From the NCBI RefSeq assembly GCF_023734095.1, contig NZ_AP024620.1, positions 1,360,501 to 1,424,500 of the forward strand: a stretch of 64,000 nt of DNA. The letters run 5' to 3'. Origin of the DNA: Moorella sp. Hama-1. Lineage in GTDB: Bacteria > Bacillota > DSM-521 > Neomoorellales > Neomoorellaceae. Each line of letters starts with the position of its first letter. Positions within the stretch are counted from its first letter, which is position 1. Below the pieces are notes generated by a model. The model searched no databases, was not told the DNA's origin, and was given only the letters and a program-made list of their open reading frames with translations. Below, one piece after another: positions 3,064 to 57,399 of the stretch. The position numbers and the translations under genes were made by a program.

Positions 3064-3129
3064 GAGCGGGGTATGAGCCCCCCATGAGGGGCTCCTTTGA
3101 AATGAGATGTGAGAAGTGGGAGGCTTGTT

Positions 3130-3150: not shown

Positions 3151-3226
3151 GGCTTAAAGCTTGCCTGCTCTCATTTCTCCCGTTCGCTGGCGGTGGTGTG
3201 CCGCTATGGGGGATTCTTCCGGAAAA

Positions 3227-4198: not shown

Positions 4199-4230
4199 TA
4201 CCAAGCACTCCTTTCAACCTTAAATCGGTA

Positions 4231-6887: not shown

Positions 6888-6940
6888 AGGCTTCTTCCCT
6901 TCGAAATTAGATGTAAGATGTTAGATGTGGGAGGTTTGTA

Positions 6941-6996
6941 GAAACTGGCTACGCCAGTTTCGTTATTTTAAATCTGGAATTGGCAATGCCAATTCC
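6941..6996. repeat. Tandem palindromic hairpins between acsC and the RACo gene (copy 2 of the hairpin repeat)
   Basis: GAAACTGGC-TAC-GCCAGTTTC at 6941-6961 repeats the hairpin at 3130-3150 with one loop difference. A second perfect palindrome, GGAATTGGC-AAT-GCCAATTCC, follows at 6976-6996. Neither is followed by a T-tract. They could stabilise or process the acs mRNA. Confidence 0.6.
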
Positions 6997-7018
6997 CACC
7001 TACCACTTCTCACCTCAC

Positions 7019-8359: not shown

Positions 8360-8392
8360 AGTTTGTTAACTCCTTTCTTTATAATTAACCGG

Positions 8393-8432
8393 CCCGCCCC
8401 GGAGCTAGCGCCGGGCACCGCTCCGGGACGGG
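8393..8432 (-). other. Strong intercistronic hairpin between acsB and acsC
   Basis: CCCGCCCCGGAGC (8393-8405) pairs with GCTCCGGGACGGG (8420-8432), 12 of 13 positions. No T-tract follows on the minus strand, so a terminator is unlikely. A role in mRNA processing or stability that sets subunit ratios is inferred. Confidence 0.6.
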
Positions 8433-8443
8433 TTCGGGGTTAA

Positions 8444-31968: not shown

Positions 31969-32048
31969 ACTGCATACCTCCAAACCCAACAGGCATAAGT
32001 TTGACTAAGTGCCGTGCCTGGCAGGGAGTATTGGGTATAATGCACCTT

Positions 32049-33341: not shown

Positions 33342-33415
33342 TCCTTTCGCTGGTAGGATTTAATTGCGCACGGCTAAGGCCCAAACAGGAAGGTTAACTG
33401 GCCCTGGTGTGATAT

Positions 33416-33485
33416 AAAAAACCAGGCAACCGTGGTCCGACAACGAAGGTAGACCTTCGTAGCCGGGCAATTTGCGGTTGCCTGG
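33416..33485 (-). terminator. Terminator overlapping the purine riboswitch aptamer
   Basis: On the minus strand CCAGGCAACCG (33,475-33,485) pairs perfectly with CGGTTGCCTGG (33,422-33,432), followed by six T. An inner stem pairs the aptamer's 3' P1 strand, CTACGAAGG, with CCTTCGTTG. Both terminator strands on the 5' side are parts of the aptamer, so ligand binding should prevent terminator formation. Confidence 0.8.
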
Positions 33486-33525
33486 TAGAAACCCCCGGTC
33501 CCTATTGCCGGGGATATACGAAGCA
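33453..33525 (-). ncRNA. Purine (guanine-class) riboswitch with a variant core
   Basis: The aptamer shows P1 TTCGTA/TACGAA, P2 CCCCGG/CCGGGG, the invariant J2/3 TTTCTACC, P3 GGCAA/TTGCC and L3 CCGCAAA, which can form the two loop-loop G-C pairs with GG of L2. The specificity position (74 in xpt numbering) is C, which selects guanine-like ligands. The preceding base is G where the consensus has A73, a core change. It lies about 110 bases before the xanthine-dehydrogenase-type genes. Confidence 0.85.
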
Positions 33526-33751
33526 ATGGTGAGACCTATTGAACGCTATTACTTTATTATTCGCTTCCCTGCCCCATAATTCCTGCTACCGTTCCTTTCT
33601 TCATAAGAAAAAAACTTACTAAGAAACTCCCGCCTCTTTGACCCAAAGCTGGACGGTTCCCCGTCTCCATCAGAGGAAACTCTATGCTACCTGGATACTT
33701 AATCAGTAGCACATCGTAGCACATTACCCAGAAGGGTTTGGGGTATGGGGA

Positions 33752-41071: not shown

Positions 41072-41368
41072 TTACATTAATAGCAGCAATTCTTCTGCAT
41101 TTATAACCTGGTAGCGACCGTTATCTTCCCGGCGATAAAATTAAACCTGCTGCCGGTCCGGGTCAATGAGCCGCATATCCAGCCGGGCTCCTGGCAGCAC
41201 AAAATACCAAACCTCATCCAGCTCTAAGCGACAGGGAAGGCAATGTTAACCAAGGGAGAGTCTAAACCCTTCTCCGCAATGAAGTCCGTACTTACGTCCA
41301 TCCAACTCAACCATCCAGCGGTCCTGGCCGGGGTCGTAGGTCAGGTCACATTTATGACGCTTTATCAT
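41072..41368 (-). pseudogene. DUF5348-like protein, broken
   Basis: From an ATG at 41,368 the frame reads IKRHKCDLTYDPGQDRWMVELD then YGLHCGEGF, the DUF5348 pattern. It stops early at a TAA, continues in another frame (LELDEVWYFVLPGARLDMRL), and continues again after a further TAA (FYRREDNGRYQVINAEELLLL). At least one frameshift and one nonsense change have inactivated it. DUF5348 genes accompany TniB/ExeA-type transposon ATPases, which matches the neighbour. Confidence 0.65.
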
Positions 41369-41991
41369 AATAATTCCCCTTCAATGACCCGTTGGACCAT
41401 GTGATCGTCAATGATGCGTCGGCCATTTTGGGAACCATAAAGCAGGCAGTGGGTGCAGACCTTGTTGACGAGTCGGAGTATACCGCTGGTGAACTGAAAG
41501 ATCGCATCCAGGGCACCGTCCGAGAAAATATCATGCGCAGCACCGGCATAAAGGAGGTGCTGCCGCACATATTCCCCCATCTGGGCCCGGTCGAGGTGGG
41601 GTAGTTTACACTGGAGATCGATACGTTGCCGGATGGCAGCATAGGCCTGGAGCTTAAATTAGTCCCAGAGCTGACCAACGAGGATTAAGGCCATCGGACT
41701 TTGGGAATCCATTTGGAAATTGAGCTGGAAGCGGACCTCCTCCAGCATCTCGCGGTCCAGAAGATGGGCTTCATCGACAATGACCACTGCCTGGAGAAAC
41801 TGGAGGCCGCGCATTAGTTCGATTTTCCGGTGAAACTGGCGTTTGGCTGCGCCTCGATAGAATTTGGCTATACAATCTGGTAAAGGCAGGAAAAGGTTAT
41901 GGATATCAGCGCAACGATTCAGAAATCGGCGGTTTAACAAAAAACCGGCTTCAGGGATAACCCGGAAACCGGCTTGATTTTCTGTCCTCAT
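41365..41991 (-). pseudogene. Transposon-associated AAA ATPase (ExeA/TniB-like), broken
   Basis: A Walker B box (AVVIVDEAHLLDREMLEEVRFQLN) and sensor-1-like MALILVGQ are followed by an in-frame TAA at 41,659. The frame then continues (FKLQAYAAIRQRIDLQCKLPHLDRAQMGEYV... TSGILRLVNKVCTHCLL... VIEGELL), which is the C-terminal half of ExeA-type helpers of Mu/Tn7-like transposons. No Walker A box is visible, so the N-terminus is missing or shifted. Bases 41,992-42,240 upstream read as scrambled coding sequence, possibly the end of the transposase. A dead element. Confidence 0.7.
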
Positions 41992-42356
41992 GGCACCTGT
42001 TCCAGGCCGGCGGCGCGCTTAAAAAACGCCCGGTGGCGGAACGGTTAGCGTAGACTTTCTTCAAGGCCCAAGAACGGCGAGGTATTTGTGTAAAGAGGCG
42101 TCGGTCATCATGATGTTTAGTATAAACAGTTTCGCTACAAAAGGACGCAGTTTCAAGCGCCGGCCACGGATTATTGCCAGTTTCTCCATTCAACAACGGT
42201 GGAAGAAATCATAAGAAGAAATCATAAAAAGTACCGACGCCAGGCGTCTTATTTTGCTCAAAACCCGCAACCTTATCCCGTCTGGGAATGCCGCCATAAC
42301 TCGCCGTTAATCTAACACCCCCTGGGCAGCCAGAGTGACGTTGACCAGCCAGCGCC

Positions 42357-43022
42357 TTAAACAGGACGCCGCCAGCCGTTCAGGTAGGCCAGCACCTGGT
42401 CGGTAGTTACCACGTCGCCATACTTCATATGGAAATTGAATAGGGACACCTTGTGGGTGATATTGCTCCGATCGGCAACGCATTCCTCCGGGATAATGGT
42501 GCGGTAGCCGTTTGAGAAGGAGTCCACGGCGGTGGCGTAGACGCAGCCACTGGTCACCATACCGGTGACGATGGTGGTATCAACCCCGAGTTGGGTCAGC
42601 ATGGAGGCCAGGGCAGTGCCGAAAAAGCCGCTCGGGTAGGCCTTGACGATAACTGGTTCGGTGGGCATGGGCTTCAGTTCGTCGACGATATCGTAGGCCT
42701 CAGGGAGCGCTAGGGCCTGCTCCACAGCCGGCGTTCGCTTCCAGAGGCCTCGTTCTACCGCGTTATCGCTCCAGCGGGCGGTGGTGTAAATTACCGGCAC
42801 ACCCTTAGCACGGCAGGAGTCTAGCACTCGCTTGATGGCCTTGATGCAGGGGCCGGCGGTCTCGCTTTTGCCCAGGAGGTACTTGCTGTTGGCAAAAGCA
42901 TTGGCCATGTCGATGATCAGTAGGGCGGGATTCTTCCCGAAGCCCACCATCGTTTCACCCATGCCGCCGGTGGCGTAGGTCGAGAGTTCAGCGGCGGGGA
43001 TTACATCATCCCAGATTGCCAT
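42357..43022 (-). CDS. Isochorismatase-like cysteine hydrolase
   Basis: 221 residues. The catalytic triad of the family is visible: Asp in NPALLIIDMANAF (about residue 38), Lys in VIVKAYPSGFFGT (about 125) and Cys in GMVTSGCVYATAVDSF (about 160). Relatives hydrolyse N-carbamoyl compounds, ureidoacrylate, nicotinamide or isochorismate. In a cluster with a nucleobase permease and PucR, a carbamoyl- or amide-hydrolase role is most likely. GGGAGG lies eight bases before the ATG. Confidence 0.88.
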   Translation of the reverse strand: MAIWDDVIPAAELSTYATGGMGETMVGFGKNPALLIIDMANAFANSKYLLGKSETAGPCIKAIKRVLDSCRAKGVPVIYTTARWSDNAVERGLWKRTPAVEQALALPEAYDIVDELKPMPTEPVIVKAYPSGFFGTALASMLTQLGVDTTIVTGMVTSGCVYATAVDSFSNGYRTIIPEECVADRSNITHKVSLFNFHMKYGDVVTTDQVLAYLNGWRRPV

Positions 43023-43320
43023 TGGCTATACCTCCCGTATTTAGTTGTACGTTCTCAGAAACTCCCAAGCGTTGGGACTCAAGCCCTTCATGAAGGGCTT
43101 TTATTTTTTCTCCTCATCTCTGACTATTTCAAAACGTCACCAAAGTCTGGGCAGAAGCTGGCTACAAAACAACCAAGTGTCATAAGGAGGTTGGTCAAGC
43201 GGGCTATTAAAGGCCGGTACGTCAACAACGGCTTTAATAAAAGCATGGCGAATTAAGTGGCGTTGTCCTTTGGCTGCTGGCAGCAAGTGGGTTAAACAGC
43301 GATTGAGTGCCTAGGTCCGG
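43023..43320. other. 298-bp gap with a stray plus-strand terminator
   Basis: Apart from the hairpin at 43,081 I see nothing supported. It separates the UbiD-type genes from the hydrolase gene. Confidence 0.4.
43081..43109 (+). terminator. Terminator-like hairpin on the plus strand with no gene before it
   Basis: The perfect 20-base palindrome AAGCCCTTCATGAAGGGCTT is followed by TTATTTTTTC on the plus strand only. The nearest plus-strand gene ends at 40,692, so it is orphaned or ends antisense RNA. Confidence 0.55.
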
Positions 43321-43518
43321 TTATCCCTTAGCCGCCAGAAAGTAACGGCCATCTGGTTCGCGTCCCAGCTCCCCGGCGGTCTGCAGTTCGCTCCAGGCCT
43401 GCAAAAAAGCACGGTAAGTGCTGTCCGGGAAGAGGTCCAGAATCTCGGCGAAGTGCAGCTTCTGGTCCTTCAGAACTGCCCGGATACGGTCGATGATCAC
43501 CCTGACTTCCGTACTCAT
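43321..43518 (-). CDS. Small winged-helix-like protein coupled to the UbiD-type gene
   Basis: 65 residues (MSTEVRVIIDRIRAVLKDQK ... FAEILDLFPDSTYRAFLQAWSELQTAGELG ... GRYFL). The pattern of three helices and a beta wing resembles a winged-helix fold. The ATG overlaps the stop of the decarboxylase gene and has GGAGG upstream, so it is translated with it. Tiny partners of this sort occur with some UbiD-type decarboxylases; I do not know its role. Confidence 0.65.
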   Translation of the reverse strand: MSTEVRVIIDRIRAVLKDQKLHFAEILDLFPDSTYRAFLQAWSELQTAGELGREPDGRYFLAAKG

Positions 43519-44894
43519 GCCAACTCACCTCCGTCAGAATCTGCCAGCAAGTTATCCAGGTCGACCTCGTCCATGTGGTAATACTTGATGGGCTCATAGC
43601 GATCCCAGGGTATCGATTCCGGCTTGGTGGCATCAATCCCCAGCTTGGAGGTCATGGGCAGTACGCCCTTGGGCAACCGCCAGGCCTCCAGGGAAGGGTC
43701 TACATGGACGCCACGGGTGCCGGTGACGATCATCACATCTTCCACCGGCCGCACCCGGAAGGCGACCGCCCGGTCTAGGGCCACCTGGTCGAAGATGTCA
43801 ACGTCGCTGTCGGTAATGATAGCGATTTTGATCCCGCCCACCGCCAGGGCGGCCAGCAAGGCATTCTTACCCTCGCCGGTACGCTTCTCCACCGAGACCA
43901 CGACCTGCCAGAAGCAGGCTGCTCCCGGCGTGGTACGAACCTCATGCACCTTCACCCCGGCGTCGCGGATGGCTTGCAGCACCGCGATCTCAGTCGCCGC
44001 AGCGTGAAGGAAGTCGTTCTCCCAGGGCATGCAGCAGGTATAGTAGATGGGTTCGCGGCGCATAGTCATACAGTGGTAGCGGACCACCGGGTTCCACTTG
44101 CTTTCACCCTGAAAGCCGGCGAATTCGCCGAAAGGCCCCTCCTGGACTGTCCAGCCTATGGGCAGGATCTCGCCCTCCAGTACGATCTCTGCGTCGGCCG
44201 GAACGGGTAGGTCGTTTGTTTCGCTTTTGGTAACGGCGAGGGGCTCGTTCATCAGCCTGCTGGCGATGTCCAGTTCCGAAAGGCCAGCAGGCGCCCGGTA
44301 AGTGGCGGCCATCATCAGGAGCGGATGGACGCCGATGGCCACTGAGATGGGCAAGGGTTTACCCATCTTAAAGGCCCGCTCGTAAAAGGACCGCAGGTCA
44401 GAGGCTGTCTGTAAGTCAATGCCGGTTTCGTTTTTTGTCCGGAACATCAACCGGTACATGCCGGCGTTAATGCCAAGCTCTCCCAGTGGGTCGCGGGCGA
44501 TGACTACTCCGCCGGTAATGTAAGGTCCTCCGTCACCCCGGTGCAACAAGGGAATGGGCAGCGTTGTCAAGTCCACCTGCTCGCCTTTAAGCACTACCTC
44601 CTTGACCGGCCCGCCCTCCATTGCCTTCGGTAGGATCTGTCGCTGCATGCATTCGTTAAAGGTCTGGGCCAGCCGCCGTTCTGAGCACCCCAGGGCCAAG
44701 GCGATCATCTCGCGGTTGACGGCAAACCCGCTCGCCACTCGGAAACCGGAGTAACCGGCGATGTGATTTAAAAGGAGCGGTCCGTTGGCCTTAGCAGCGC
44801 ACGCTGATATGTGCCTAGGATCTATCTCCCGTTCGATCACTTTTAGCTTACCCATACCCTTAAGTTTGGCAATAAAGTCTCGCATACCAGCCAC
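43515..44894 (-). CDS. UbiD-family prenyl-FMN-dependent decarboxylase
   Basis: 459 residues. The family pattern is clear: GGPYITGGVVIARDPLG, EIVLEGEILP, and EGPFGEFAGFQG, which carries the acidic residues of the catalytic Arg-Glu-Glu set, and a C-terminal oligomerisation part (DVDIFDQVALDRAVAFRVRP). Such enzymes (de)carboxylate aromatic, heteroaromatic or alpha,beta-unsaturated acids with prenylated FMN. No UbiX-type prenyltransferase gene is in the window. In this cluster the substrate may be a heterocyclic acid. GTG start with ATG three codons later as an alternative. Confidence 0.9.
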   Translation of the reverse strand: MAGMRDFIAKLKGMGKLKVIEREIDPRHISACAAKANGPLLLNHIAGYSGFRVASGFAVNREMIALALGCSERRLAQTFNECMQRQILPKAMEGGPVKEVVLKGEQVDLTTLPIPLLHRGDGGPYITGGVVIARDPLGELGINAGMYRLMFRTKNETGIDLQTASDLRSFYERAFKMGKPLPISVAIGVHPLLMMAATYRAPAGLSELDIASRLMNEPLAVTKSETNDLPVPADAEIVLEGEILPIGWTVQEGPFGEFAGFQGESKWNPVVRYHCMTMRREPIYYTCCMPWENDFLHAAATEIAVLQAIRDAGVKVHEVRTTPGAACFWQVVVSVEKRTGEGKNALLAALAVGGIKIAIITDSDVDIFDQVALDRAVAFRVRPVEDVMIVTGTRGVHVDPSLEAWRLPKGVLPMTSKLGIDATKPESIPWDRYEPIKYYHMDEVDLDNLLADSDGGELA

Positions 44895-45263
44895 GCCTTA
44901 AAATCGCCTCCTCATATTTTAAAGTACTTTCTTAGACACCATAAGTTCCAGTAAATACCTGCCTTTGGGGGCTGTTGCTTTCTCCATTTTGTGACTCTTG
45001 CCTCTCTATTTAACGTTTATGGTTTATTTTTCTTGTTTGAGAGTGACTTCGTTATTCGTCCGGCATGTCTTGTATTTTTGGCATCAATTCCCTTTGATCG
45101 ACTATTACCTATCTTTGTATGGGGTTTTCTGGAGATTTCCGAGAATCTACATTTACTGTGCGATTACTGTGCGATGCCTACGCACCGCCCCTGGTAATTC
45201 GTTGATAAAAGCAGCCTAAACTAGAGTGGTTAAATCGGATAAGCCCTATATATACTGGCCCTT
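44895..45263. other. 369-bp gap between NCS2 permease and UbiD-type gene
   Basis: AT-rich and without a supported gene. A 69-codon plus-strand frame (44,991-45,197) is hydrophobic but has no ribosome-binding site. The promoter of the UbiD-type gene may lie here. Confidence 0.4.
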
Positions 45264-46610
45264 TTACTGGCCTTTTCCGGCCATCTTCTTCTGCTCTAGC
45301 TCGCCAGCCTTGAGGACTAGATTGAAGATAACGTGCAAAACTATGGCCGACAGGAACCCTATAACTACGCTGGAAGCGACAAAAGGCCGAAGGAGAACGG
45401 GCAGCATCGCAATGAACTCCTTGGGCAGGAAACTGACGCCGATGCCGACCACGATGCTGGTGCCTACGGCGAACATGTTGGCGTTGGTCATGGACATAGC
45501 CCCCATGACGCGGATGGCTTGCATGCAGAGCATGGCGATGGTAGACAGCAGCAAACCGCCGACGATGGGGCCGGGGATAGCCGAGACGATGGCACCGACC
45601 TTGGGCACAAGGCCGAGTATGACCAAGATTACGCCAGCAGTGGCAAAGACGAAGCGGCTGCCGATGCCGGTCACCGAGACGGCGCCAATGTTCTGGTTAT
45701 ACGTGACGGTAGGTAGACCGCCGAAAGCACTGCTAAGGGCCGAGCCCAGGCTCTCGGTAAGGATGCCGCCATCGATGCGCTTATCGGAGACTTTCTGCTT
45801 TCCGATGACCTCACCCATCAGCAGGTAGCTACCCACAACCTGACCAAGATCGGCGATGAAGGCAATCAGCATCACCAGAGTTGCTCCTAGGTCAAATTGG
45901 AAGCCGAAGGGGAAGAAAACCGACAAGCCAATCCATGGTGCGTTGGCTACCCCGGCCAGGTTCATCCTGCCGGAAATAAGTGCAATCAATATTGCCACTA
46001 CCGCGCCCAGCAGCAGGGAGATCAAGCGCAGGAAGCTGGACGGCATGAGCAGGACCACGAGGACGGAAATGGCAAAAGGAATAAAGGCCAAAACGAAGTT
46101 GAAGGGCTGGCCGAAAGTCGGCGTATTAGGTACGCCCAAAATCTGGCCAAAAATGGTGCCGGAAATAGTTAAAGCAGCCATGAGCAACACCACGCTGTAA
46201 ACCTGTGGCGAGCCGAAGAGGTTCCTAGTTTTGCCCCAGAAACCCACAGCCGACAGTACAGCGGCGATTAACGAGGCGATGACCATACCGGTCCAGGCTG
46301 CCGCTGGCCCGCTCACCGCTACTACCGCCGGGACGACCGAGACGAAGACGATGGCCGGGCCCTGGAGGACTGGTAAACGTAAAATCCATAAAGCTTGGCC
46401 AATGGTAACCAGGCCAGCGCCGATGAGGACCGCCTGCACCATGAAGGCCCCGGTTGCCAATGGGAATTGCAGGGTACGCGCCAGAAGGACGGGGATGATC
46501 AGGATAGTCGTATCCACGGTGAGCTGCTGGATGGCATAAATGATGTTCTGCCACCACTTCAATTTGTCCTCGACGCCGATAATCAGGTCAACACGTTGCA
46601 AGTCAGCCAA
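45264..46610 (-). CDS. NCS2-family nucleobase permease (xanthine/uracil type)
   Basis: About 448 residues and 13-14 membrane helices. Family features are LPVLQGPAIVFVSVVPAV near residue 75 and the signature region SLGSALSSAFGGLPTVTYNQNIGAVSVTGIGSR, which shapes the substrate site. NCS2 proteins import xanthine, urate or uracil with protons. I take the TTG at 46,610, nine bases after GGGGG; the frame to 46,643 has no good site. It sits within the putative catabolic cluster and would provide its substrate. Confidence 0.9.
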   Translation of the reverse strand: MADLQRVDLIIGVEDKLKWWQNIIYAIQQLTVDTTILIIPVLLARTLQFPLATGAFMVQAVLIGAGLVTIGQALWILRLPVLQGPAIVFVSVVPAVVAVSGPAAAWTGMVIASLIAAVLSAVGFWGKTRNLFGSPQVYSVVLLMAALTISGTIFGQILGVPNTPTFGQPFNFVLAFIPFAISVLVVLLMPSSFLRLISLLLGAVVAILIALISGRMNLAGVANAPWIGLSVFFPFGFQFDLGATLVMLIAFIADLGQVVGSYLLMGEVIGKQKVSDKRIDGGILTESLGSALSSAFGGLPTVTYNQNIGAVSVTGIGSRFVFATAGVILVILGLVPKVGAIVSAIPGPIVGGLLLSTIAMLCMQAIRVMGAMSMTNANMFAVGTSIVVGIGVSFLPKEFIAMLPVLLRPFVASSVVIGFLSAIVLHVIFNLVLKAGELEQKKMAGKGQ

Positions 46611-46817
46611 AGTACTACACCCCCTAAAAACTTTTTTAGTCATATTTCGCCGGCTGTAAGGAAACCTCTGCTAATCCTTGTAAATCTTACGAGGGGTCTG
46701 TTTCTGGCAGTAAGGTGCCCCATTTTTGTAGCGGTAAGATATCTTCCGACCAGTGAGGATAGTTGGCAAACATATAGCAAAAACCCCAGGCAAAAATCCT
46801 CTAAACTTTGATACTAC

Positions 46818-46863
46818 TGGATCCGATGACGGGGATTGGACCCACGACCACGCCTTACGAGTG
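46818..46863 (-). tRNA. 3' half of a tRNA (fragment)
   Basis: On the minus strand CTCGTAAGGCG-TGGTC-GTGGGTCCAATCCCCGT-CATCGGA-TCCA reads like an anticodon loop (possibly CGT), variable loop, T-arm, acceptor strand and CCA of a tRNA. The bases before it cannot complete the anticodon stem, D-arm or acceptor. Such 3' fragments mark the far end of elements integrated in tRNA genes. Nothing more than the fragment is visible. Confidence 0.5.
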
Positions 46864-47030
46864 CGAATAAACCCTCTTTTTAGGGTAGAAATGGGTCATT
46901 ATGAGATAAGGGGTATCCCCGTATAATCTTGCCTTACATAATGATAGACTACGGGAAGAAGGGATCCCCCATAACTCTGTAGCTATGTTTTCTCCACCAG
47001 GTCCGCGCAGCTCTACCGTCTCAATTCTGC

Positions 47031-47165
47031 CTATTCCCCTATCACCATACAAAGGCCTCTTAGTGCGCCATTCTCCCTCAGAAAGCGCAGCAAAGTAAGG
47101 TCGGAATCTACAGTAGCTGCTACGGGTTGGCCATTGACTGTCAGGCTCACCTGTTGACGGGACAT
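47031..47165 (-). pseudogene. Xanthine-dehydrogenase [2Fe-2S] subunit, N-terminal remnant
   Basis: The frame begins MSRQQVSLTVNGQPVAATVD and continues with SDLTLLRFLRENGALRG, the usual N-terminus of XdhC/CoxS-type ferredoxin subunits. Family members then have a cysteine cluster (GCGxGxCGAC). Here the similarity ends at LRG, followed by LCMVIGE and a TAG, so the rest has been deleted. GAGGTG lies upstream of the ATG. It suggests that a molybdenum hydroxylase once belonged to this cluster. Confidence 0.7.
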
Positions 47166-47171
47166 TGAAAC

Positions 47172-48056
47172 TCACCTCGCTTCTATCCCCAGCAGCTCTG
47201 CCGGTTTTTTGACCACCATCTGGCGGATTTCTTCCTCGGTCAACCCTTTTTCGAATAAGCACTGGGCGAAAACCCGTAAGGACTCCTGGGGCATGGGATT
47301 ATGCCTCTGGCCAGCATCGCTGATTAAAACGGCGTGTTCTACCCCGATAGTGTTAATGGCGGCAAAGACTTCTTCGATGGTGGCGTAATGCCACATGGGC
47401 GACACTGTGCAGTAACCGAATTCCGCCGTGGCCCCCAGGGCGACCAGTTCCTTTAATTGTTCCACAGATAGCTTCGGGACCTTGAAAAAGGGATGGGTGA
47501 TAAGGATCTTTTTTATACCTTCCGACCGTGCCGCTTGTACTAGGGCAAAGATCTCCTCCGGCGCCAAGTGGCAGGTAGCAAGAATGGCCCCGTAACTGGC
47601 AACGAGTTTTAAGACCTCCAGGGTATTACCGGTAAGATTATTTTCGCTATCGAATATGGAAATTCCTGCCACGCCATTTTCCTCGCCAGTATTTCCCCCC
47701 TCCTGGACATCATACTTACCCCGTGAACCGTGGATCCGGGCATGGTAATCGGCGTCGATGGTGGGCATCCAGACGACTTTGCCGCCCATCTTCAGGGCGG
47801 CTTCCACCGCGGCCGGATTAATACCGCCGACGTAGGTATTGAGGACGATGCCGCCGAAAACATGAAACCCTTCTACCTGCCGGGAGACCTCCCTGGCCCG
47901 GGAGACGGTGCTCTCGTGGTGACATTTCAGAACTATGCCGCCCATCCCGGCCCCGGCTGCAGCCTGAACGGCTGTAAAATCATCGCAGATCCGGGGAAAA
48001 AGACAGGGATGGGTATGAACATGGAGATCAATGGCCCCTTGCAAATCGACAAGCAT
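47172..48056 (-). CDS. DUF6282-type metal-dependent hydrolase
   Basis: 294 residues. The N-terminal IDLHVHTHPCLFPR motif (His-x-His metal ligands), CHHEST near residue 45, ATCHLAPEEI near 160, ILITHPFF near 188 and ISDAGQRHNP near 245 supply the ligands expected of an amidohydrolase-like TIM barrel. The family has no established reaction. Its position between a PreA-like dehydrogenase (14 bp upstream) and a nucleobase permease suggests opening of a cyclic amide ring. GGGGG precedes the ATG. Confidence 0.75.
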   Translation of the reverse strand: MLVDLQGAIDLHVHTHPCLFPRICDDFTAVQAAAGAGMGGIVLKCHHESTVSRAREVSRQVEGFHVFGGIVLNTYVGGINPAAVEAALKMGGKVVWMPTIDADYHARIHGSRGKYDVQEGGNTGEENGVAGISIFDSENNLTGNTLEVLKLVASYGAILATCHLAPEEIFALVQAARSEGIKKILITHPFFKVPKLSVEQLKELVALGATAEFGYCTVSPMWHYATIEEVFAAINTIGVEHAVLISDAGQRHNPMPQESLRVFAQCLFEKGLTEEEIRQMVVKKPAELLGIEAR

Positions 48057-48070
48057 TTTTTAGCCCCCTA

Positions 48071-49225
48071 CTATTCTTTTAGTTCGATGGCACCAGCCGG
48101 GCACCACTGGGCACAGAGGCCGCATCCATCGCAAGCGTCGCGTTCGGCCCAGGTCCGGCCCTCTTCCTGGTGGATAGCGCCGTAGAAGCATACCCGGCTG
48201 CAGATATCGCAGTTTTTACAAAGACTCATATTGATGGTAGCAAAACGTGGGGGCTCCTGGGCCAGTTCTTCTACCGTCTTGATATAGGGAAGAGCTATAC
48301 CTCGGAAATCATCAATTGATTTATAACCCTTACGTTCCATAAATTCTTCCAGGCCCCGCAGGATCTTCTCGACTTTGCCCAGCCCATCCCACATAACTGT
48401 TGTCGCTACCTGAACGGTAGTCGCTCCCAACATGATATACTCGACAACTTCGCGCCAACTGGTTATGCCCCCTACAGCGGCAAGGGGTACTTTTACTGCC
48501 CGGGCTACTTCGGAAAAGTGACGCATGATAATGGGCTTAATGGCCGGGCCGGTATAACCGCCATAACCGCGCAAATGCGGTCTCCCGGCTTCTATATCTA
48601 CGCCGGCAAAGGAGCGGATGGAGTTGCTAATGGTGATGGCATCGACCCCGGCCTCGACAGCCGCCCGGGCGACTTCCACCATATCGGCGACGTTGGGCGT
48701 TAACTTAACTGATAGTGGTAATCTGAGTGCCCCTTTAGCTGCTTTGACTTGGCGGAAAGTCAGCTCCGGGTTTTTACCGATATGCATGCCTACCGTCGCC
48801 GCCGGCATGGGACAGGAGACATTTAATTCAAAGAGATCTGCCAGGCCGGTGGCTTCTACCTGTTGGGCCAGTTCGGCGGTTTGTTCCGGTTCCGGCATGG
48901 CCAGGATGCTGGCGAAGATTTTAGCTCCTCCCTCTCGCGCCACGGCCAGATCATGGGCAATCCATTCATCGCGGGTTTTGGTGGTAAAGAGCTCCAAATT
49001 AACCATACCAATGGGGCGGTTGCCGACCCGATAGAGGAAGAGGCGGCCGTTACGGGGATGAACGGCCCAATCCTGTATCGGGCCGATGGTTTTAGGTACC
49101 ACGGCGCCAAAACCGGCCTGCCCGGCCTCTTTTAACCGGGGGCCATCCCAACCAGGGGTGGCTGAAGCCAGTACCAGGGGATTACGGAAGGTTACTCCGG
49201 CGAAGTTTACTTGAAGATCTGCCAC
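48071..49225 (-). CDS. PreA-like dihydropyrimidine/dihydroorotate dehydrogenase with C-terminal ferredoxin domain
   Basis: About 384 residues. The FMN-binding TIM barrel carries FAGVTFRNPLVLASATPG, LFELNVSCPMPAATVGMHIGKNP, PLSVKLTPNVADM, ITISNSI and AAVGGITSWREVVEYIMLGATTVQVAT. The C-terminus has two [4Fe-4S] motifs (CKNCDICSRVC and CDGCGLCAQWC). This is the architecture of PreA, which with PreT reduces uracil or thymine; no PreT gene is visible. I use the GTG at 49,225 with GAGGTG upstream, since the family starts at ADLQVNF. Confidence 0.85.
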   Translation of the reverse strand: MADLQVNFAGVTFRNPLVLASATPGWDGPRLKEAGQAGFGAVVPKTIGPIQDWAVHPRNGRLFLYRVGNRPIGMVNLELFTTKTRDEWIAHDLAVAREGGAKIFASILAMPEPEQTAELAQQVEATGLADLFELNVSCPMPAATVGMHIGKNPELTFRQVKAAKGALRLPLSVKLTPNVADMVEVARAAVEAGVDAITISNSIRSFAGVDIEAGRPHLRGYGGYTGPAIKPIIMRHFSEVARAVKVPLAAVGGITSWREVVEYIMLGATTVQVATTVMWDGLGKVEKILRGLEEFMERKGYKSIDDFRGIALPYIKTVEELAQEPPRFATINMSLCKNCDICSRVCFYGAIHQEEGRTWAERDACDGCGLCAQWCPAGAIELKE

Positions 49226-49346
49226 ATTTATGCACCTCTTTGCTCTGTTACCAATGTTGATTGTTATCAAGATTCGTTTTGTAAGTCAAAAAGCCTTTAG
49301 ACCAAAGGAACAAGAATGAAGTTCTTATTTTATACCTCATGCTTCC

Positions 49347-50024
49347 TTATGCTTCCTCTTGCTCTAAAACACTCAGGGCCTGCTCCAGGGCGGCCTGGTT
49401 ACTGGTGACCACCGGCAGCCCGGTTAGGTACTCCAGGCGATCCCGGACATCCAGGGCATGAAAATTAGTACAGGAAAGGAAGATGCCATCAATCTTTTGT
49501 CCTTCGATGGTCTTCAGGGTAAAGGATAGGATCTCCTCGGGGGTAACACCGGCGATGGCAAAGTTATAATCGATGCCCAAACCGGCAATTAAGGCCACTT
49601 CGAGGCCATCGGCTTCCAGGCTGGCCTGGATACGCTCATTTAAGCTTTCAATGTAAGGGGTTATTACCGCTACCCGGTGCATACCCCTCTTTTTTAAGCT
49701 CTCCCTAACGCTGGCCACCGTACTGATGGCCGGACAGCGGGCTGTATCGCTGATGCGCCGGCAGAGCTCACTGTCATAAGCATTGCCTCGCAGAGCTCCG
49801 GCTGAGGTGCAACCGAAAACAATAGCCTGGGGTTCAACAGTGGCTAAGTCCCGCAGGGCGATGGGAAAATGGCTATCGAGCATCTCCTCTTCTCCGGCTA
49901 CGGTTGTATCCCTTAAATACATGCGTGCTACATGAAGGGTAATACTGTTGGGTAAATGGCGGTAAAAATCTACTTCCATAACTGAGTTGGAGGATGGGAC
50001 GATTAAACCTAGACGTTGCTGCAT
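49347..50024 (-). CDS. Asp/Glu/hydantoin racemase-superfamily enzyme (maleate isomerase-like)
   Basis: 225 residues. Two catalytic cysteines sit in the expected places: VFGCTSAGAL near residue 75 and FLSCTNFHALD near residue 185. The N-terminus LGLIVPSSNSVMEVDFYRHLP is typical of the maleate isomerase/arylmalonate decarboxylase branch. Possible reactions are maleate-fumarate isomerisation, hydantoin racemisation or malonate decarboxylation. The gene is the first structural gene of the cluster next to PucR. Start ATG at 50,024 behind GGGGG. Confidence 0.85.
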   Translation of the reverse strand: MQQRLGLIVPSSNSVMEVDFYRHLPNSITLHVARMYLRDTTVAGEEEMLDSHFPIALRDLATVEPQAIVFGCTSAGALRGNAYDSELCRRISDTARCPAISTVASVRESLKKRGMHRVAVITPYIESLNERIQASLEADGLEVALIAGLGIDYNFAIAGVTPEEILSFTLKTIEGQKIDGIFLSCTNFHALDVRDRLEYLTGLPVVTSNQAALEQALSVLEQEEA

Positions 50025-50110
50025 TTTTAGGCCCCCTTGCCTTTTTATCTTTACATGCAAAGGTATTCGGCGTTCATGCAGCTCTCCCTTTGGACCAGGG
50101 TTACAAATCT

Positions 50111-50147
50111 AAAAAGCCCCCACTGGACCATTCATCAGTGGGGGCTT
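50111..50147 (-). terminator. Terminator of the PucR-type regulator gene
   Basis: AAGCCCCCACTG and CAGTGGGGGCTT, a perfect 12-bp stem with a 10-nt loop. On the minus strand it is followed by TTTAGATTT. It isolates the regulator from the catabolic genes. Confidence 0.85.
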
Positions 50148-50224
50148 CCTTGCCCACGTAAACTACGCTGCTTAACTAGCTCTGTTATAACATAGGCTGG
50201 CATTATTTCAAGCTTTTTCTCAGC

Positions 50225-51856
50225 TCAAGAAGTTAGCTGGGACAATTTTGCGGCTAGCATAAGTAAAAAGCGATCTTCAGCACTATTGAGAGTCAGCCCT
50301 GTAATCTCCTCGATTTTTTTGACCCGGTAAATAACGGAGTTTTTATGGACGAATAAGTCCTGGGCGGTTTTACGCAGGTTTCCCTCGTTGTTGAGATAAC
50401 AAAACAAGGTTGCTACCAGGTCGGTTTTGTTCTGGCTATCGTAATCCCTTAATCTCCCGATATACTCTCGGCAGAAATCTTTCGCCTGGGGTAAATCCTT
50501 GACACTGAACAAGATGCGCAGGGGCCCTAATTCGGCAAAAGAAACTGGTTCCGGCGAAGTGGCCTGCCAGGCTACCTTCAGGGCCAGCAGGGCTTCTTCA
50601 TAGGAGGTTTTAATCTGGGTTAAGCCTTCATAAGCCCGGCCAATACCCACCCGCAACCTGGCTTTAGGGTAGCGGGAGGTGGTCGTAGCCAGGATTTCTT
50701 GTAAAATTCCCGGCACCTCTTGCCCTTTCCCCACGCAATAACGTAACAGGCCGATGACCTGGTCGCCCTTGCTTTGGAGCAGGATTCCCCCGGGGCGCTG
50801 GCCAAAGCGGGCCCGCAGGAGGTGGATAATCTCTGAATGGACATCTATATGGTATCCTGTCGTCCGGTTGTCAATAGCAAAACCAATTATGAAAACTACC
50901 AGCTGGCCCGTCACATTAATCCCCAGGTGAGCGGCGCGTTTGATTATATTTTCCGTATTATCTATTTTCCCCTGGAGCAACTCATCCAGGAGTTCACTAC
51001 CCAGGCGAATCTCGGTCTCGGCAACAGCCCTTTGTTTGGTAAACTCCAGGGCGACGATGGCAGCTCCGGTTTCAATACCCCGGATTTCTATATCGTTTAA
51101 AGGACGGTTGCTTTCGCTAATTACCAGGTAACCGTCTATTGTCTCCTGGGTAGCTACCGGTACAATAACGCAGGCAGGTAATTCGGGACTCAACTGAAGG
51201 TGGGCTGCGCGGTGCGGAGACAGGCTTCTTATCTCTTCTGGAATTTCTTGGAAGATACCGGCCAGAATCTCACCCCGGGCAGGAAGCAGTTGACCGTTCT
51301 TAAGGGGCGGGTAGCCGGCCCCCAGGCAGGTACCACAGCTAAAGATAAAAACAGGGTTGGTCGTAAACTGGGCCAGGGCTTTACAGACCCCGGGCAGGCC
51401 GCTGCCACCCAGGATAACGTTAATCAGGAGATCGTGAATCTCCTGGGAACGCTGGCGGCGATAGAGTTGTTCGTTGATTAACAGTTCAAAGATGGGTAGC
51501 ATGATATCCATATAAGGGACGTCAGAAGGTAATTCCAGCAGGGGCAGGCCTGCCTGGTTGGCGTGCTCGATCATATCGGTAGGGATGTCCTGGAGGTACT
51601 GGCCGGGTTTGATAGCAAATGCGGTTACCCCCTTACCGACCAGGTCGTAGATAATCCGCTTGCGCAGTTCGGGATTATCCTTGAGGGCAAAACCGGCCGT
51701 AAGCAGTAGTTCGCCCCCTTTCATCCAGCGGGTCACTTCCGGAACTTCCATGATATTGACGAAGGTTATTTCCCTTTCCAGGTTGTGGGCACCGGCAACT
51801 ACTCTGGCCCGGCGCAAAGGGCCAATCTGTAAGGCTTGACTCACGGAAAGGGGCAT
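50225..51856 (-). CDS. pucR: PucR-family transcriptional regulator
   Basis: 543 residues. The N-terminal PucR domain (about residues 1-125, SVSQALQIGPLRRARVVAG ... EVPEVTRWMKGGELLLTAGFAL) is followed by a GAF/GGDEF-like middle part and the C-terminal HTH_30 domain (VATLFCYLNNEGNLRKTAQDL ... HKNSVIYRVKKIEEITG). PucR proteins activate purine catabolism in Bacillus and related pathways elsewhere. I take the ATG at 51,856, eight bases after GGGAG. It is transcribed alone and terminates before the cluster it probably controls. Confidence 0.9.
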   Translation of the reverse strand: MPLSVSQALQIGPLRRARVVAGAHNLEREITFVNIMEVPEVTRWMKGGELLLTAGFALKDNPELRKRIIYDLVGKGVTAFAIKPGQYLQDIPTDMIEHANQAGLPLLELPSDVPYMDIMLPIFELLINEQLYRRQRSQEIHDLLINVILGGSGLPGVCKALAQFTTNPVFIFSCGTCLGAGYPPLKNGQLLPARGEILAGIFQEIPEEIRSLSPHRAAHLQLSPELPACVIVPVATQETIDGYLVISESNRPLNDIEIRGIETGAAIVALEFTKQRAVAETEIRLGSELLDELLQGKIDNTENIIKRAAHLGINVTGQLVVFIIGFAIDNRTTGYHIDVHSEIIHLLRARFGQRPGGILLQSKGDQVIGLLRYCVGKGQEVPGILQEILATTTSRYPKARLRVGIGRAYEGLTQIKTSYEEALLALKVAWQATSPEPVSFAELGPLRILFSVKDLPQAKDFCREYIGRLRDYDSQNKTDLVATLFCYLNNEGNLRKTAQDLFVHKNSVIYRVKKIEEITGLTLNSAEDRFLLMLAAKLSQLTS

Positions 51857-52052
51857 GGCTACCACTCCCAGATAAAAACCTTCACTATTATAATCAATAT
51901 TCAACATTGTTTATAGGAAATCCTTTTTTAGAACTTAGTTATAGCTGCTTACCTGAGTTTAAATGGCCTTCGAAACTTACTCCCAAGATGCTCAAAGGAA
52001 GCTGGAACGAAGGAACATCCCCAACAAAGGGATGATGACCAACGGGCTTATA

Positions 52053-53594: not shown

Positions 53595-54231
53595 GACCTT
53601 CACCTCCTGCCAGGATATCATGGAGATATTCTTTATCGGCGGTGACCCAGCCGGCGCATAACTGGAGCAGGGAGCTGTAAAGCCCCGGTCCGGTATCCTC
53701 CGTCAGCCGGGCGTATACCGGCAACCAGCGGTCCAGATGGGACGAGAGAAATTGGGCCTCCAGTTTAGTCCAGGATCTATCTTCGCCGGCATTGGCCTCC
53801 TGCTGGCACAGGTAAGCCATCAGGGCCAGTTCCAGTCCCAGGTGATCGGCCAGGTGGATTTCCTTTAAAGGCGGAAACATAGCCAGGCTCCATGGGTCGA
53901 AAGCCACCGCCAGGTAACAGGCCACGACGTGACAGGTGGCCGGACCATTCAAGGGACCATAACCAATCTCCCTTACCGAATCCCGCCCGGCCGCCGTAAT
54001 CAGGGGCTCGATGGCTGCTTCATAAGGCGGCACAAAGCGGCCGGAAGACGGGACAAAGAACCGGTCAAAATACTCCTGGCGCGCTGTAGCCAAGTCTTTT
54101 TCCCCCGGCTCGCCCCCCTCCTGCCGGAGTAAATCCCGGGCTTCCTTAAGCCATAACTCGTCGGGCTCTTGCAGCAGGGAGCGGGCCCAGAAGCCATAGG
54201 TGACCGCTCGCTGGCCGGCTATCGTCTTCAT
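53557..54231 (-). CDS. TorD-family molybdoenzyme chaperone
   Basis: 224 residues, all-helical by composition. TorD/DmsD-like features are YEAAIEPLITAAGRDSVREIG, HLADHLGLELALMAYLCQQE near residue 120 (the conserved histidine-aspartate region) and LDRWLPVYARLTE. Such proteins hold the Tat signal of the catalytic subunit back until the cofactor is inserted. The ATG overlaps the stop of the oxidoreductase gene (ATGA), which ties chaperone and client together. Confidence 0.87.
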   Translation of the reverse strand: MKTIAGQRAVTYGFWARSLLQEPDELWLKEARDLLRQEGGEPGEKDLATARQEYFDRFFVPSSGRFVPPYEAAIEPLITAAGRDSVREIGYGPLNGPATCHVVACYLAVAFDPWSLAMFPPLKEIHLADHLGLELALMAYLCQQEANAGEDRSWTKLEAQFLSSHLDRWLPVYARLTEDTGPGLYSSLLQLCAGWVTADKEYLHDILAGGEGLEFDNEAVRHGH

Positions 54232-57200
54232 GCCGGTTCCACCCGGTAGGCGCCACCGTTGCGGCCCGGGCCGCCGGTGGCCATTTCACTGTAGGCAAAG
54301 AGGCCCTTGACGCTTGGGTCCGTAAGGCTCATCCGGCTAAGGCAGATACCGGTGCCGCGCCGGGGTTCACCCTTGACGGCCTGGGAACCAAACTGGCCGT
54401 CCCGGGAACCATACTCCCAGTGACCGTAACCAAAGGCCACCCCTAGGGCTCCCCGGGCAATACCCGGCCGGACCCTCAACTGACCCATGGCCTGGGCGCC
54501 GGTGGCGGCTACGAGTTTAACCCGCTGGCCGTCTTTCAGGCCCAGTTTGGCCGCGTCTTCACTGTTCATCTCAATGAAGTTGGCCGGCCCCAGATCTTGC
54601 ATAATAGGGGCGTTGGTCAGCATGCTGACGCTACGGAATTTAGCCTTGTAAGAAACAGCCTTGAAAGGCCACTTATCGGGCGGGAAGGCCTTATCCAGGG
54701 GCGTACCGTCAGCCAGGGCCTCCGGGTACCAGCCCATGACGCCGGGATAGAACTCACCGGTGAAGGAGTTTCTGCTGGTGGCCAGGACCTCGCTATAGAC
54801 ATTGAAAACGCCGGTAGAAGGATACTTATGGTTGTCACCTTCAAAGCCGCCGCCATAATCTTCAAAACGACCGCCCCGGGAGAGAACGTAGAGGACCGGG
54901 GGCCATTCCTTAGGCTTCAAGGCCTGGCGCCAGTCGCCGGTGGCCTGATCCAGTTCCTGGAGGCGGGTTTCCTCGGGCTGAATGGCCGGTACCGGCGTAC
55001 CGTCAAAAGCTACGTTGGCCACAGCTTTTAAGAAGAAATCAGCCGGGGTGTTTAAGGGATAGAGATTGCCGTCTTTATCGGGTATGGCCTGATCGCCAAA
55101 GCCGGGAACGCCGATCTTTTTGGCCACGTCAATCAGGAAATTTTCGTAGCAGGCATAACGCCCGGGTCCGATTTTGGGCGTCATGGGGATGACCACCGGC
55201 CAGCGTATGGTGCTGGCTTTGGTAGGCACGTTGCCCTCCGGCGTCCAGACCCCCCAGCTCTCATACTGGGTGGTATCAGGAAGGATATAGTCTGCCAGGG
55301 AGGTAGATTCCCCCATAAAAGCGTCGCAGGCAATAATCAACGGCACCCGTTCTGGTTTCTTGAGTTCGTTAATAACCTCTTCCCGCCCGGCCGCCGGGCT
55401 GGTCATCAGGGGATTGGTCATCCAGAAAATGACGATCTTTGCCTGGTACGGATAGCCGTTGGCGATAGAGAAAATCGCCTGATTGTCGTTGGCGCCGTTA
55501 ACCGGGTGCCAGGGGAATTTAGAGGGATAAGGTTTTTCCCCCTTCGCCATCTTATTCTTATATTCGCTAGTCTTCTCGTAGGGGAAGCCGCAGCGGTCAA
55601 TACGGGCGCCGGCGGTTTTGGCCATGCCGGGATATTTAGTGAGATCGTAGCGTGGACCGGGGGTGAAGGATTTATACTGCAGCCGCCGGGGGATGACGCC
55701 GCCCTTTTTGTTGCACGCCCCCACCAGGGCCGGCAGCAGAGTCAGACCCCAGGCGGCAAAGAGGCCGTTAGCTGCGGCTGTCCCACCAAGGCCGCTGACA
55801 CACACCCTGGTGCCGTGGGAAGTAAACTCCCGGGCCAGGGCGATGATTTGCTCTTTGGGCACACCACAGGCCTCAGCATATTGCTCATAGGTGTATTTCA
55901 TGGCGCTGGCCTTAAGGAGATTCATGCTGGTTTCGACTTTGATGGGCTGGCCGTCGGGGCCGGTAACCGTGCCGGCAAAGAAGAGCTCGGCCTCCTTGCT
56001 GGCGCTATGCAGGGCCGGCTTGCCACTGGCCTTGTCCATGACCACAAAGTATTTGGGCGCCGGTTGGGCTTCGGTCCCCGGGGCTGGTTCCGGCGGTGGT
56101 GGTACGGACAGACCGATGTCTTCCGGGGCCAGCATCTTACGGTAATGGGGATGCTGGGGATCGGTGATAACCAGGTGGGTGGCGTTGGTCCAGCTGTTGA
56201 ATCCCTTCTCCCTGGCCGCCGCCAGGTTGGGCGAGCTTAAAAAGGTGGTATTAATCTTATTATTTTCCAGCATCCAGCGGATCATGCCCAGCATCAGGGC
56301 CGCGTCAGTCGCCGGTTTAACGGGCAACCATCTGGTTTTTTCGTTTAAGGGGTTAAGGGCACCGCCCTGGAGGACGGGATCGACGACCACAAATTGGGCT
56401 TTGCCGTCCGCGGCCGCCCGGGCCGCCTGGCGGGCCATGGCAGTCATTGGTTTCCCGCTATGCCCGGGGTAGGCGCCGATGAAGAGGGCAAATTCCGTAT
56501 TGTTGACATCAGGCCTCAGGCCTTCTCCAGCCACCTGCGCCGCAGGTGTAGCCGAGCCCCCTCAGCTGCTACCGTGGCCGTAGTTATTGACGGTACCGAA
56601 GGCCCCGGCAAAACGACCGGCAAAGACGGTGCGGCCGTCGCCCCGCCCGCCGCACATGACCAGCTGGTTGGCTTTAGGCCCTAACTCCGGTTGAGACGGA
56701 TCCAGGGGGGTTTTCCGGTCGAAGACCTGGCGGAAACCCTCTACCTGGCGGTCTTCACCCACATGCTGGAAAAGTTGGCCGCCCTCAACTGTTTCCTGGA
56801 CGGCCTGTTCCCAGGTAATGGGCTGCCACTTGTTTTCTCCCCTTTTCCCGGCCCTTTTTAAAGGTGTTAAAAGGCGCATGGGGTCGTAATGGGCCTGGAG
56901 GGTGGCATTGCCCCGGCCGCAAAGGACGGAGCGACCCTCGTGGCCCTTATCTTTGTAGGTGCTGAAGGCCAAATAGGCCTCGGCCAGGGGGGCGTTGTAA
57001 GCCAGGTGGGGTTCAGTGTTGTTGGGGTTGTAGGGATTACCGTAAACCCTTAAGATCTGGCCTGTTTTTTTATCGATTTTCACCCGGTTGCCGCAGGAAC
57101 TATAGCAACCGAGGCAGGCACTATGACGCATGATAATCTCCGGGTTGGGCTGGACGTTACCGCTGGCCGGGTCGATCCGGGCCTCAACTGCCTGGCCGCC

Positions 57201-57323
57201 GCTGTCATCTGCGGGTGGCAGACCAGCCGGAGGTGCGGCCTGGCTCCGGGGTTCCAGGCCCAGGCCGCAGAAGGCCGTGGCCCCTACGGCCGCCGACAGC
57301 TTTAAAAACTCACGGCGATTCAC
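54228..57323 (-). CDS. Selenocysteine-containing molybdopterin oxidoreductase, TtrA-like, Tat-exported
   Basis: 1,031 residues if TGA at 56,562-56,564 is read as selenocysteine (residue 254). A Tat signal NRREFLKLSAAVGATAFCG begins at the GTG, eight bases after AAGGGG. The N-terminal [4Fe-4S] site is CLGCYSSCG...CGRGNA. Sec lies in NYGHGSS-U-GGSATPA, where the family has the Mo/W ligand. The molybdopterin domains follow, and the C-terminal dinucleotide-binding domain has FGYGHWEYGSRDGQ, as I recall it in tetrathionate reductases. A hairpin begins 14 bases after the TGA. Both sides of the TGA are intact and in frame. Tetrathionate, thiosulfate, selenate or arsenate are possible substrates; none is shown by sequence. 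Confidence 0.85.
56530..56564 (-). promoter_or_regulatory. Bacterial SECIS-like hairpin at the in-frame TGA
   Basis: After TGA (56,562-56,564) come 13 bases and then CACCTGC-GGC-GCAGGTG, a perfect 7-bp stem with a GGC loop. The loop starts 20 bases after the TGA and opens with G, which fits the general bacterial SECIS rules (loop 16-37 bases downstream with an early G). SelB binding is inferred. Confidence 0.7.
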
Positions 57324-57374
57324 TAAAACTTCACCCCTTATAAAGTCAAGATAAATCCATGTGTGAACTATAAC

Positions 57375-57392
57375 TTGCAAGAAACATGCCAA
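57375..57392 (-). promoter_or_regulatory. Sigma-54 (-24/-12) promoter of the selenoprotein operon
   Basis: Minus strand TTGGCATGTTTCTTGCAA matches the TGGCA-N7-TTGC consensus, with GG and GC elements at the required spacing. Transcription would start near 57,365, about 42 bases before the GTG at 57,323. The insertion element ends 8 bases upstream of it. A sigma-54 activator gene lies on the far side of the element. Confidence 0.8.
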
Positions 57393-57399
57393 CAAAAAA

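What the first reader, a model, noticed from the sequence alone, without database searches (positions are those of the whole stretch)
42357..51856. Possible undescribed anaerobic pathway for a nucleobase or N-heterocycle
PucR regulator, Asp/Glu racemase-type enzyme, PreA-like reductase with ferredoxin domain, DUF6282 hydrolase, NCS2 permease, UbiD-type decarboxylase with a tiny partner, and an isochorismatase-type hydrolase lie together on one strand. Import, ring reduction, ring opening, carbamoyl hydrolysis, isomerisation and decarboxylation could make a full route. I know no characterised pathway with this set.
Basis: inference. Interest (0 to 1): 0.7.

Follow-up and report, generated by a model that had tools for sequence, protein, structure and literature searches.

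The report
Trimmed anaerobic nucleobase-ring opening gene cluster
This stretch of an acetogen's genome holds a rare but conserved set of genes that probably reduces and hydrolyses a nucleobase-like ring without oxygen; it points to a job for the uncharacterised protein family DUF6282, but one part that relatives carry in the same place, a molybdenum hydroxylase, survives here only as a stub.

Summary
The eight genes are real and co-directional. So the window is a trimmed cluster joined to a second module.

Core PucR–AMD–PreA–DUF6282 recurs, mostly followed by XDH1 and a transporter, in distant genomes of the phylum. UbiD, its 65-aa partner and the isochorismatase-type hydrolase (ISO) recur together in only one other genome of 398 (G188), beside a xanthine-dehydrogenase homologue and one of three near-identical PreA copies; the other two copies sit next to AMD–PucR and DUF6282–XDH1. 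That ties both modules to one pathway.

In two genomes without detectable DUF6282, the gene after the same PreA is a dihydropyrimidinase: the best clue that DUF6282, a predicted amidohydrolase TIM barrel, opens the ring.

Best model: a ferredoxin-dependent reductive route for a cyclic ureide or imide (oxo-purine/pyrimidine-like): UbiD decarboxylation, PreA reduction, DUF6282 ring opening, carbamoyl or amide removal by ISO, isomerisation by AMD. Substrate unproven.

The parts
50225..51907 (-). PucR-type regulator (likely start 51856)
   Evidence: PF07905, HTH_30, GGDEF_2; orthologues beside AMD/PreA in G371, G112, G047, G188
49347..50060 (-). AMD: maleate isomerase / Asp-Glu racemase-type enzyme with two conserved Cys (C84, C197 in this ORF; likely start 50024)
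   Evidence: PF17645 and PF01177; both Cys kept in all six orthologues; best solved hits arylmalonate decarboxylase and maleate isomerase
48071..49270 (-). PREA: dihydropyrimidine-dehydrogenase-like reductase with C-terminal 2x[4Fe-4S], no FAD/NAD subunit (likely start 49225)
   Evidence: keeps DPD residues matching N609, E611, N668, S670, C671, N736; I613 is F, T737 is S
47172..48056 (-). DUF6282 amidohydrolase-type TIM barrel, proposed ring-opening hydrolase
   Evidence: PF19799 2.4e-72; AF2 model pLDDT 85; Z about 20 to isoaspartyl dipeptidase, PTE-like, dihydroorotase; HxH, K, H, H, D invariant
47055..47165 (-). Stub of an XDH1 [2Fe-2S] small-subunit gene (first ~37 codons); remainder absent
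   Evidence: 67.6% identity over 37 aa to L040:10447, E 5e-10; similarity then stops
45264..46643 (-). NCS2 nucleobase permease (xanthine-permease-like, below the curated cut-off)
   Evidence: PF00860 3.4e-57; TIGR03173 234 bits vs cut-off 414; no homologue in the related clusters
43515..44894 (-). UbiD-family prFMN decarboxylase, nearest solved relative HmfF
   Evidence: PF01977; 6h6v 270 bits, next 137; close orthologue only in G188 of 398 genomes; a UbiX-like gene occurs elsewhere in this genome
43321..43518 (-). SML: 65-aa winged-helix protein, 4-bp overlap with UbiD
   Evidence: AF2 pLDDT 93, 3 helices plus hairpin; winged-helix matches (E no better than 6e-3); orthologue directly after UbiD in G188 (37%/54 aa, E 7e-9)
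42357..43022 (-). ISO: isochorismatase-type amidohydrolase, N-carbamoylsarcosine amidase-like (D38, K127, C160)
   Evidence: PF00857; best solved hit N-carbamoylsarcosine amidohydrolase 127 bits; 62% orthologue beside UbiD in G188

Best explanation
The cluster encodes an anaerobic reductive ring-opening route for a nucleobase-like heterocycle (cyclic ureide or imide), built on the same logic as reductive pyrimidine and reductive uric acid degradation but with different parts. Proposed order: (1) NCS2 imports an oxo-purine/pyrimidine-like compound; (2) UbiD (with the small winged-helix partner) removes a ring carboxylate while the ring is still aromatic; (3) the PreA-type enzyme, fed by reduced ferredoxin, reduces the C=C next to the ring carbonyl; (4) DUF6282 hydrolyses the reduced ring, taking the place of dihydropyrimidinase; (5) ISO removes the resulting carbamoyl or amide group; (6) AMD racemises or isomerises an intermediate. 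In relatives a molybdenum hydroxylase (XDH1) probably first adds the ring oxygen; here it has been lost, either because the imported compound is already oxidised or because one of the genome's other XDH-like enzymes serves. Shown: gene content, recurrence, active-site residues, XDH1 loss, the DUF6282/dihydropyrimidinase swap beside the same PreA. Inferred: substrate, step order, electron donor, every activity.
For: Core: AMD, PREA and DUF6282 lie together in G371, G379, G112 and G047 (PREA 65-88%, DUF6282 66-79%, AMD 65-75% identical), with PucR in three of these and XDH1 subunits next to DUF6282 in all four. PREA and close DUF6282 co-occur in 6 genomes of 398 (9 and 7 carriers; Fisher 1e-10, not corrected for relatedness). 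Second module: UbiD (61%), ISO (62%), SML (37%) occur together in G188:C7 with XDH2 and PREA; XDH2 passes the XdhA equivalog cut-off (1133 vs 780 bits). G188 has three near-identical, not identical, PREA copies at contig ends, beside AMD-PucR, DUF6282-XDH1 and ISO-UbiD-XDH2. DUF6282 role: adjacent to PREA in 6 loci (14 bp apart here); in G338 and G360, with no DUF6282 hit at E<=1e-20, the gene after PREA is a dihydropyrimidinase (481 and 485 bits, cut-off 393), with a carbamoyltransferase and carbamate kinase nearby. PREA keeps the DPD active-site loop incl. the catalytic Cys, which the urate-cluster PreA types here lack. Coupling of ring reduction and hydrolysis has a precedent in YgfK/UacX-SsnA (PMC12507026).
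Against: No substrate or activity is shown. XDH1 is a stub here, so the pathway may be crippled or rewired. UbiD/ISO are absent near PREA in most relatives. The NCS2 gene is unique to the window. TRAP/ABC importers in relatives suggest an acid rather than a free nucleobase. ISO-type proteins also hydrolyse maleamate and other amides, and AMD relatives include maleate isomerases, which would fit a pyridine route. UbiD's nearest solved relative acts on furandicarboxylate (family knowledge). Wide DUF6282 relatives (25-42%) sit in unrelated surroundings.
Confidence: 0.45

Rival explanations
1. Pyridine-type route: XDH1 hydroxylates a pyridine carboxylate (nicotinate, picolinate or dipicolinate type), UbiD decarboxylates a hydroxylated acid to a glutaconimide-like ring, PREA reduces it, DUF6282 opens the imide/lactam, ISO removes the amide (as maleamate amidase does) and AMD isomerises (as maleate isomerase does).
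For: AMD keeps both Cys of maleate isomerases; ISO hits include 3ot4/3uao (a maleamate amidase from memory); importers in relatives are TRAP/ABC; XDH1 large subunit is split as in nicotinate dehydrogenase 3hrd.
Against: The 3hrd match is not informative: the XDH of the purine-riboswitch operon in this window matches it about equally well (371 vs 390 bits). NCS2, PucR, and dihydropyrimidinase plus carbamate kinase beside PREA in relatives point to ureides.
Confidence: 0.2
2. Purine route proper: ISO and UbiD act as ureido-imidazolecarboxylate hydrolase and aminoimidazolecarboxylate decarboxylase as in the clostridial xanthinase pathway, and PREA/DUF6282 handle the imidazolone part.
For: ISO-UbiD pairs recur in G212 beside creatininase-, adenine deaminase-, FtcD- and cyclohydrolase-like genes (L079), a plausible xanthinase-pathway set; XDH2 next to ISO-UbiD in G188 is an XdhA equivalog; NCS2 is xanthine-permease-like.
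Against: Window ISO and UbiD are only 31-33% identical to the L079 pair; no deaminase, FtcD or cyclohydrolase in the window cluster; PREA and AMD have no place in that pathway; G371 and G000 carry separate urate-type clusters with their own PreA-type gene.
Confidence: 0.15
3. Two unrelated fragments lie side by side: a PucR-AMD-PreA-DUF6282 operon that lost its XDH and is decaying, and an independent NCS2-UbiD-SML-ISO island.
For: XDH1 stub and a 528-bp gap between the parts; transposition-gene-like fragments at 41.3-42.2 kb (reading); only G000 of the sampled genus carries a close DUF6282.
Against: All retained genes are open, keep active-site residues and differ from orthologues mostly at third codon positions; in G188, another family, ISO-UbiD-SML is also tied to a PREA copy; both close-UbiD genomes carry PREA, which 9 of 398 have (Fisher 5e-4).
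Confidence: 0.2

Closest known systems
Reductive pyrimidine degradation (PydA/B/C; PreTA, dihydropyrimidinase, ureidopropionase)
   Same: DPD-type ring reductase, then a cyclic amidohydrolase, then a carbamoyl hydrolase
   Different: Single-chain PreA with no NAD(P)H subunit; DUF6282 in place of dihydropyrimidinase; isochorismatase-type enzyme in place of ureidopropionase; added UbiD and racemase
Reductive uric acid degradation (XdhD, YgfK/UacX, SsnA, HyuA, YgeW/UacY, YgeY, YgeX; PMC12507026)
   Same: XDH-type enzyme plus ferredoxin-type PreA homologue coupled to an amidohydrolase
   Different: No SsnA, HyuA, YgeY or YgeX gene in the cluster; PREA is about 30% identical to the urate-cluster PreA types and keeps the Cys loop they lack
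Xanthinase pathway of purinolytic clostridia (Tong 2023, PMID 37164019, not readable here)
   Same: From memory: hydrolases plus a prFMN decarboxylase; ISO-UbiD pairing
   Different: PREA, AMD and DUF6282 have no role there; sequences are distant from the candidate pair in L079
HmfF furan-2,5-dicarboxylate decarboxylase (6h6v)
   Same: Closest solved UbiD; heteroaromatic acid substrate
   Different: No furan-pathway genes recognised nearby; extra winged-helix partner

Membership tests
Dihydropyrimidine dehydrogenase / PreA family | Pyrimidine-pocket residues and catalytic Cys loop (N609, E611, N668, S670, C671, N736 of pig DPD) | tested here: met
   Aligned residues identical; I613 is F and T737 is S
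Dihydropyrimidine dehydrogenase / PreA family | Curated PreA equivalog score | tested here: not met
   290 bits vs cut-off 335 for PRK08318
Reductive pyrimidine (Pyd) pathway | Dihydropyrimidinase and ureidopropionase genes in the cluster | tested here: not met
   Neither is in the cluster; DUF6282 and ISO occupy these positions
Reductive uric acid pathway | SsnA, HyuA, YgeY, YgeX in the cluster | tested here: not met
   None within the cluster; such genes lie elsewhere in this genome
Xanthinase pathway | Orthology to its characterised enzymes | not testable with these tools
   Source paper not held
Nicotinate fermentation (Ndh, Hnr, Ena) | Hnr and Ena orthologues | not tested
   No reference sequences searched; 3hrd similarity is uninformative
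Arylmalonate decarboxylase | Single catalytic Cys and equivalog score | tested here: not met
   Both Cys positions are Cys; 104 bits vs cut-off 225
Maleate isomerase / Asp-Glu racemase superfamily | Two catalytic Cys | tested here: met
   C84 and C197 conserved in six orthologues
UbiD decarboxylases | UbiD domains and the conserved Arg and Glu motifs | tested here: met
   PF01977/20695/20696; INAGMYR and EGPFGEF motifs
Isochorismatase-like hydrolases (N-carbamoylsarcosine amidase type) | Asp-Lys-Cys triad | tested here: met
   D38, K127, C160 aligned with N-carbamoylsarcosine amidohydrolase
Amidohydrolase superfamily (for DUF6282) | TIM barrel with HxH, His, His, Asp metal ligands | tested here: met
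   Model and conserved residues; metal binding itself not tested

The most novel reading that the evidence does not exclude
An undescribed anaerobic pathway in which a carboxylated N-heterocycle is decarboxylated by a prFMN enzyme with a winged-helix partner, reduced by a ferredoxin-dependent PreA subfamily and opened by DUF6282, a dihydropyrimidinase-type enzyme of separate origin.
Probability: 0.35. Interest if true: 0.72.

Novelty: new variant of a known kind. Interest (0 to 1): 0.5.

Why it matters
It gives a testable function to DUF6282, for which the held library has no paper, defines a PreA subfamily (59-88% identity) that appears with two different ring-opening enzymes, and suggests that reductive heterocycle opening is a modular scheme spread patchily among anaerobes. 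It also explains why the window set looks like nothing known: part of the ancestral cluster has been lost.

Tried and rejected
Nicotinate dehydrogenase identity of XDH1 by best solved hit: rejected as evidence after the control with the window's other XDH. Sequence search of DUF6282 in the PDB: no relative. Functional reading from wide DUF6282 neighbourhoods: too varied. PALP lyase as a member: found beside the core in some relatives, but elsewhere in G000, next to an XDH and urate-type genes. tRNA remnant in the 528-bp gap: no convincing gene. Papers on DUF6282 or PF19799: none. HmfF structure paper and the xanthinase paper are not held. Promoter/terminator scan: counts near the shuffled expectation. 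The one genome-contig scan found one close locus only, in Syntrophaceticus schinkii.

Full report
What is there. Eight minus-strand genes fill 42.36-51.9 kb: PucR, AMD (maleate isomerase/racemase type), PREA (DPD-like with ferredoxin domain), DUF6282, NCS2 permease, UbiD, a 65-aa protein (SML) and an isochorismatase-type hydrolase ISO. The genome is a 3.3-Mb single contig (G000); a Wood-Ljungdahl gene block in the same window suggests a Moorella-type acetogen (my reading of the ORFs). Gaps of 528, 369 and 298 bp argue against a single transcript; AMD-PREA-DUF6282 and UbiD-SML are tight.

A lost part. Six bases after the DUF6282 stop an ATG opens MSRQQVSLTVNGQPVAATVDSDLTLLRFLREN, 67.6% identical over 37 residues to the start of the XDH1 small-subunit gene that stands at the same place in G371 (E 5e-10), and then the similarity stops. 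In G371, G379, G112, G047, G188 and G118 XDH1 genes are present next to DUF6282 or PREA. So the window derives from a PucR-AMD-PREA-DUF6282-XDH1 cluster whose hydroxylase was cut away; NCS2-UbiD-SML-ISO follows. The retained genes are open, keep active-site residues and differ from orthologues mostly at third codon positions.

Recurrence. Of 398 genomes of the phylum, 26 have any DUF6282 at E<=1e-20, seven a close one (47% or more); in the sampled class only G000 and G371. The PREA subfamily occurs in nine, six of them shared with close DUF6282 (Fisher 1e-10, relatedness ignored). Close UbiD occurs in two, G000 and G188; close ISO in the same two, weaker ones (41-45%) in three more. In G188 three contigs end in near-identical but distinct PREA copies: AMD-PucR-PREA, DUF6282-XDH1-PREA, and ISO-TRAP-UbiD-SML-XDH2-PREA. 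Thus every window gene except NCS2 has its counterpart in G188, linked through PREA. XDH2 there passes the XdhA equivalog cut-off. A looser echo is G385: UbiX, ISO (40%), UbiD (35%) and a PreA-type gene (31%) together.

What the parts do. PREA retains the DPD pocket and catalytic Cys loop; the PreA-type genes of the urate clusters lack that loop. It has no NAD(P)H-binding partner here, as in UacX, for which ferredoxin has been suggested (PMC12507026). DUF6282 has no sequence relative in the PDB; its model (pLDDT 85) is a TIM barrel with amidohydrolase-type ligands, Z about 20 (rmsd about 3.2, 240-245 residues aligned) to isoaspartyl dipeptidase, TatD, PTE-like proteins and dihydroorotase, rows that are tied. 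The best functional clue is a swap: in G338 and G360, with no DUF6282 found, the next gene after PREA is a dihydropyrimidinase, with a carbamoyltransferase and a carbamate kinase close by. These genomes are drafts (95% and 89% complete), so absence of DUF6282 is not certain. AMD keeps two Cys, so it is racemase/isomerase type rather than AMDase. ISO is nearest N-carbamoylsarcosine amidohydrolase. UbiD is nearest HmfF, and a UbiX-like flavoprotein gene exists in the genome. SML is a winged helix by model and is conserved after UbiD in G188; its role is open.

Mechanism. I propose reduction and hydrolysis of a cyclic ureide or imide, with decarboxylation before and carbamoyl/amide removal after. 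Substrate candidates rank: oxo-purine/pyrimidine-like compounds, then pyridine-derived imides. The tests that could separate them are biochemical. Shown by sequence: gene set, recurrence, residues, the stub, the swap. Inferred: substrate, order of steps, electron donor, activities.

Comparison. The Pyd, reductive urate and xanthinase pathways share the logic but not the gene set (membership table). The finding is a new variant of a known kind; its most useful outcome is a testable role for DUF6282 and a defined PreA subfamily.

Noticed in passing
window 54228-57413, minus: Molybdopterin oxidoreductase gene interrupted by one in-frame TGA near 56562-56564 (context GHGSS*GGSATP); selenocysteine or a broken gene.
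   Followed up: partly
window 29654-33541, minus: Purine riboswitch ahead of an XDH large subunit in two pieces, with no small or FAD subunit gene beside it, and an amidohydrolase; two AOR-type genes lie upstream.
   Followed up: partly
L079 (G212) 1081-10521: Adenine deaminase-, FtcD-, cyclohydrolase-, ECF transporter-, creatininase-, isochorismatase-like and UbiD genes in a row: a candidate xanthinase-type purine cluster in a same-genus genome.
   Followed up: partly
L099 and L100 (G338, G360): PREA beside dihydropyrimidinase, carbamoyltransferase, carbamate kinase, glycerate kinase, enolase; L099 also has corrinoid methyltransferase-type and NCS1 genes, L100 GrdB/GrdE-type reductase genes.
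   Followed up: partly
L031 8806-12601 (Syntrophaceticus schinkii): PREA-DUF6282 pair followed by a corrinoid protein and an MtmB-like methyltransferase, hinting at N-methylated substrates.
   Followed up: no
L045 (G188:C37): Second DUF6282 (47%) with an AMD paralogue, FrdA-like flavoprotein, PALP lyase, XDH subunits and a branched-chain-type ABC importer.
   Followed up: no
window 41355-42208 and 57496-59226: Fragments resembling a transposition ATPase, and a DUF4277 (transposase-like) gene, on either side of the region.
   Followed up: no
L040 3256-4401 (G371): Glycerate kinase near the core cluster, as in L099/L100, hinting at a glycerate-type product.
   Followed up: no
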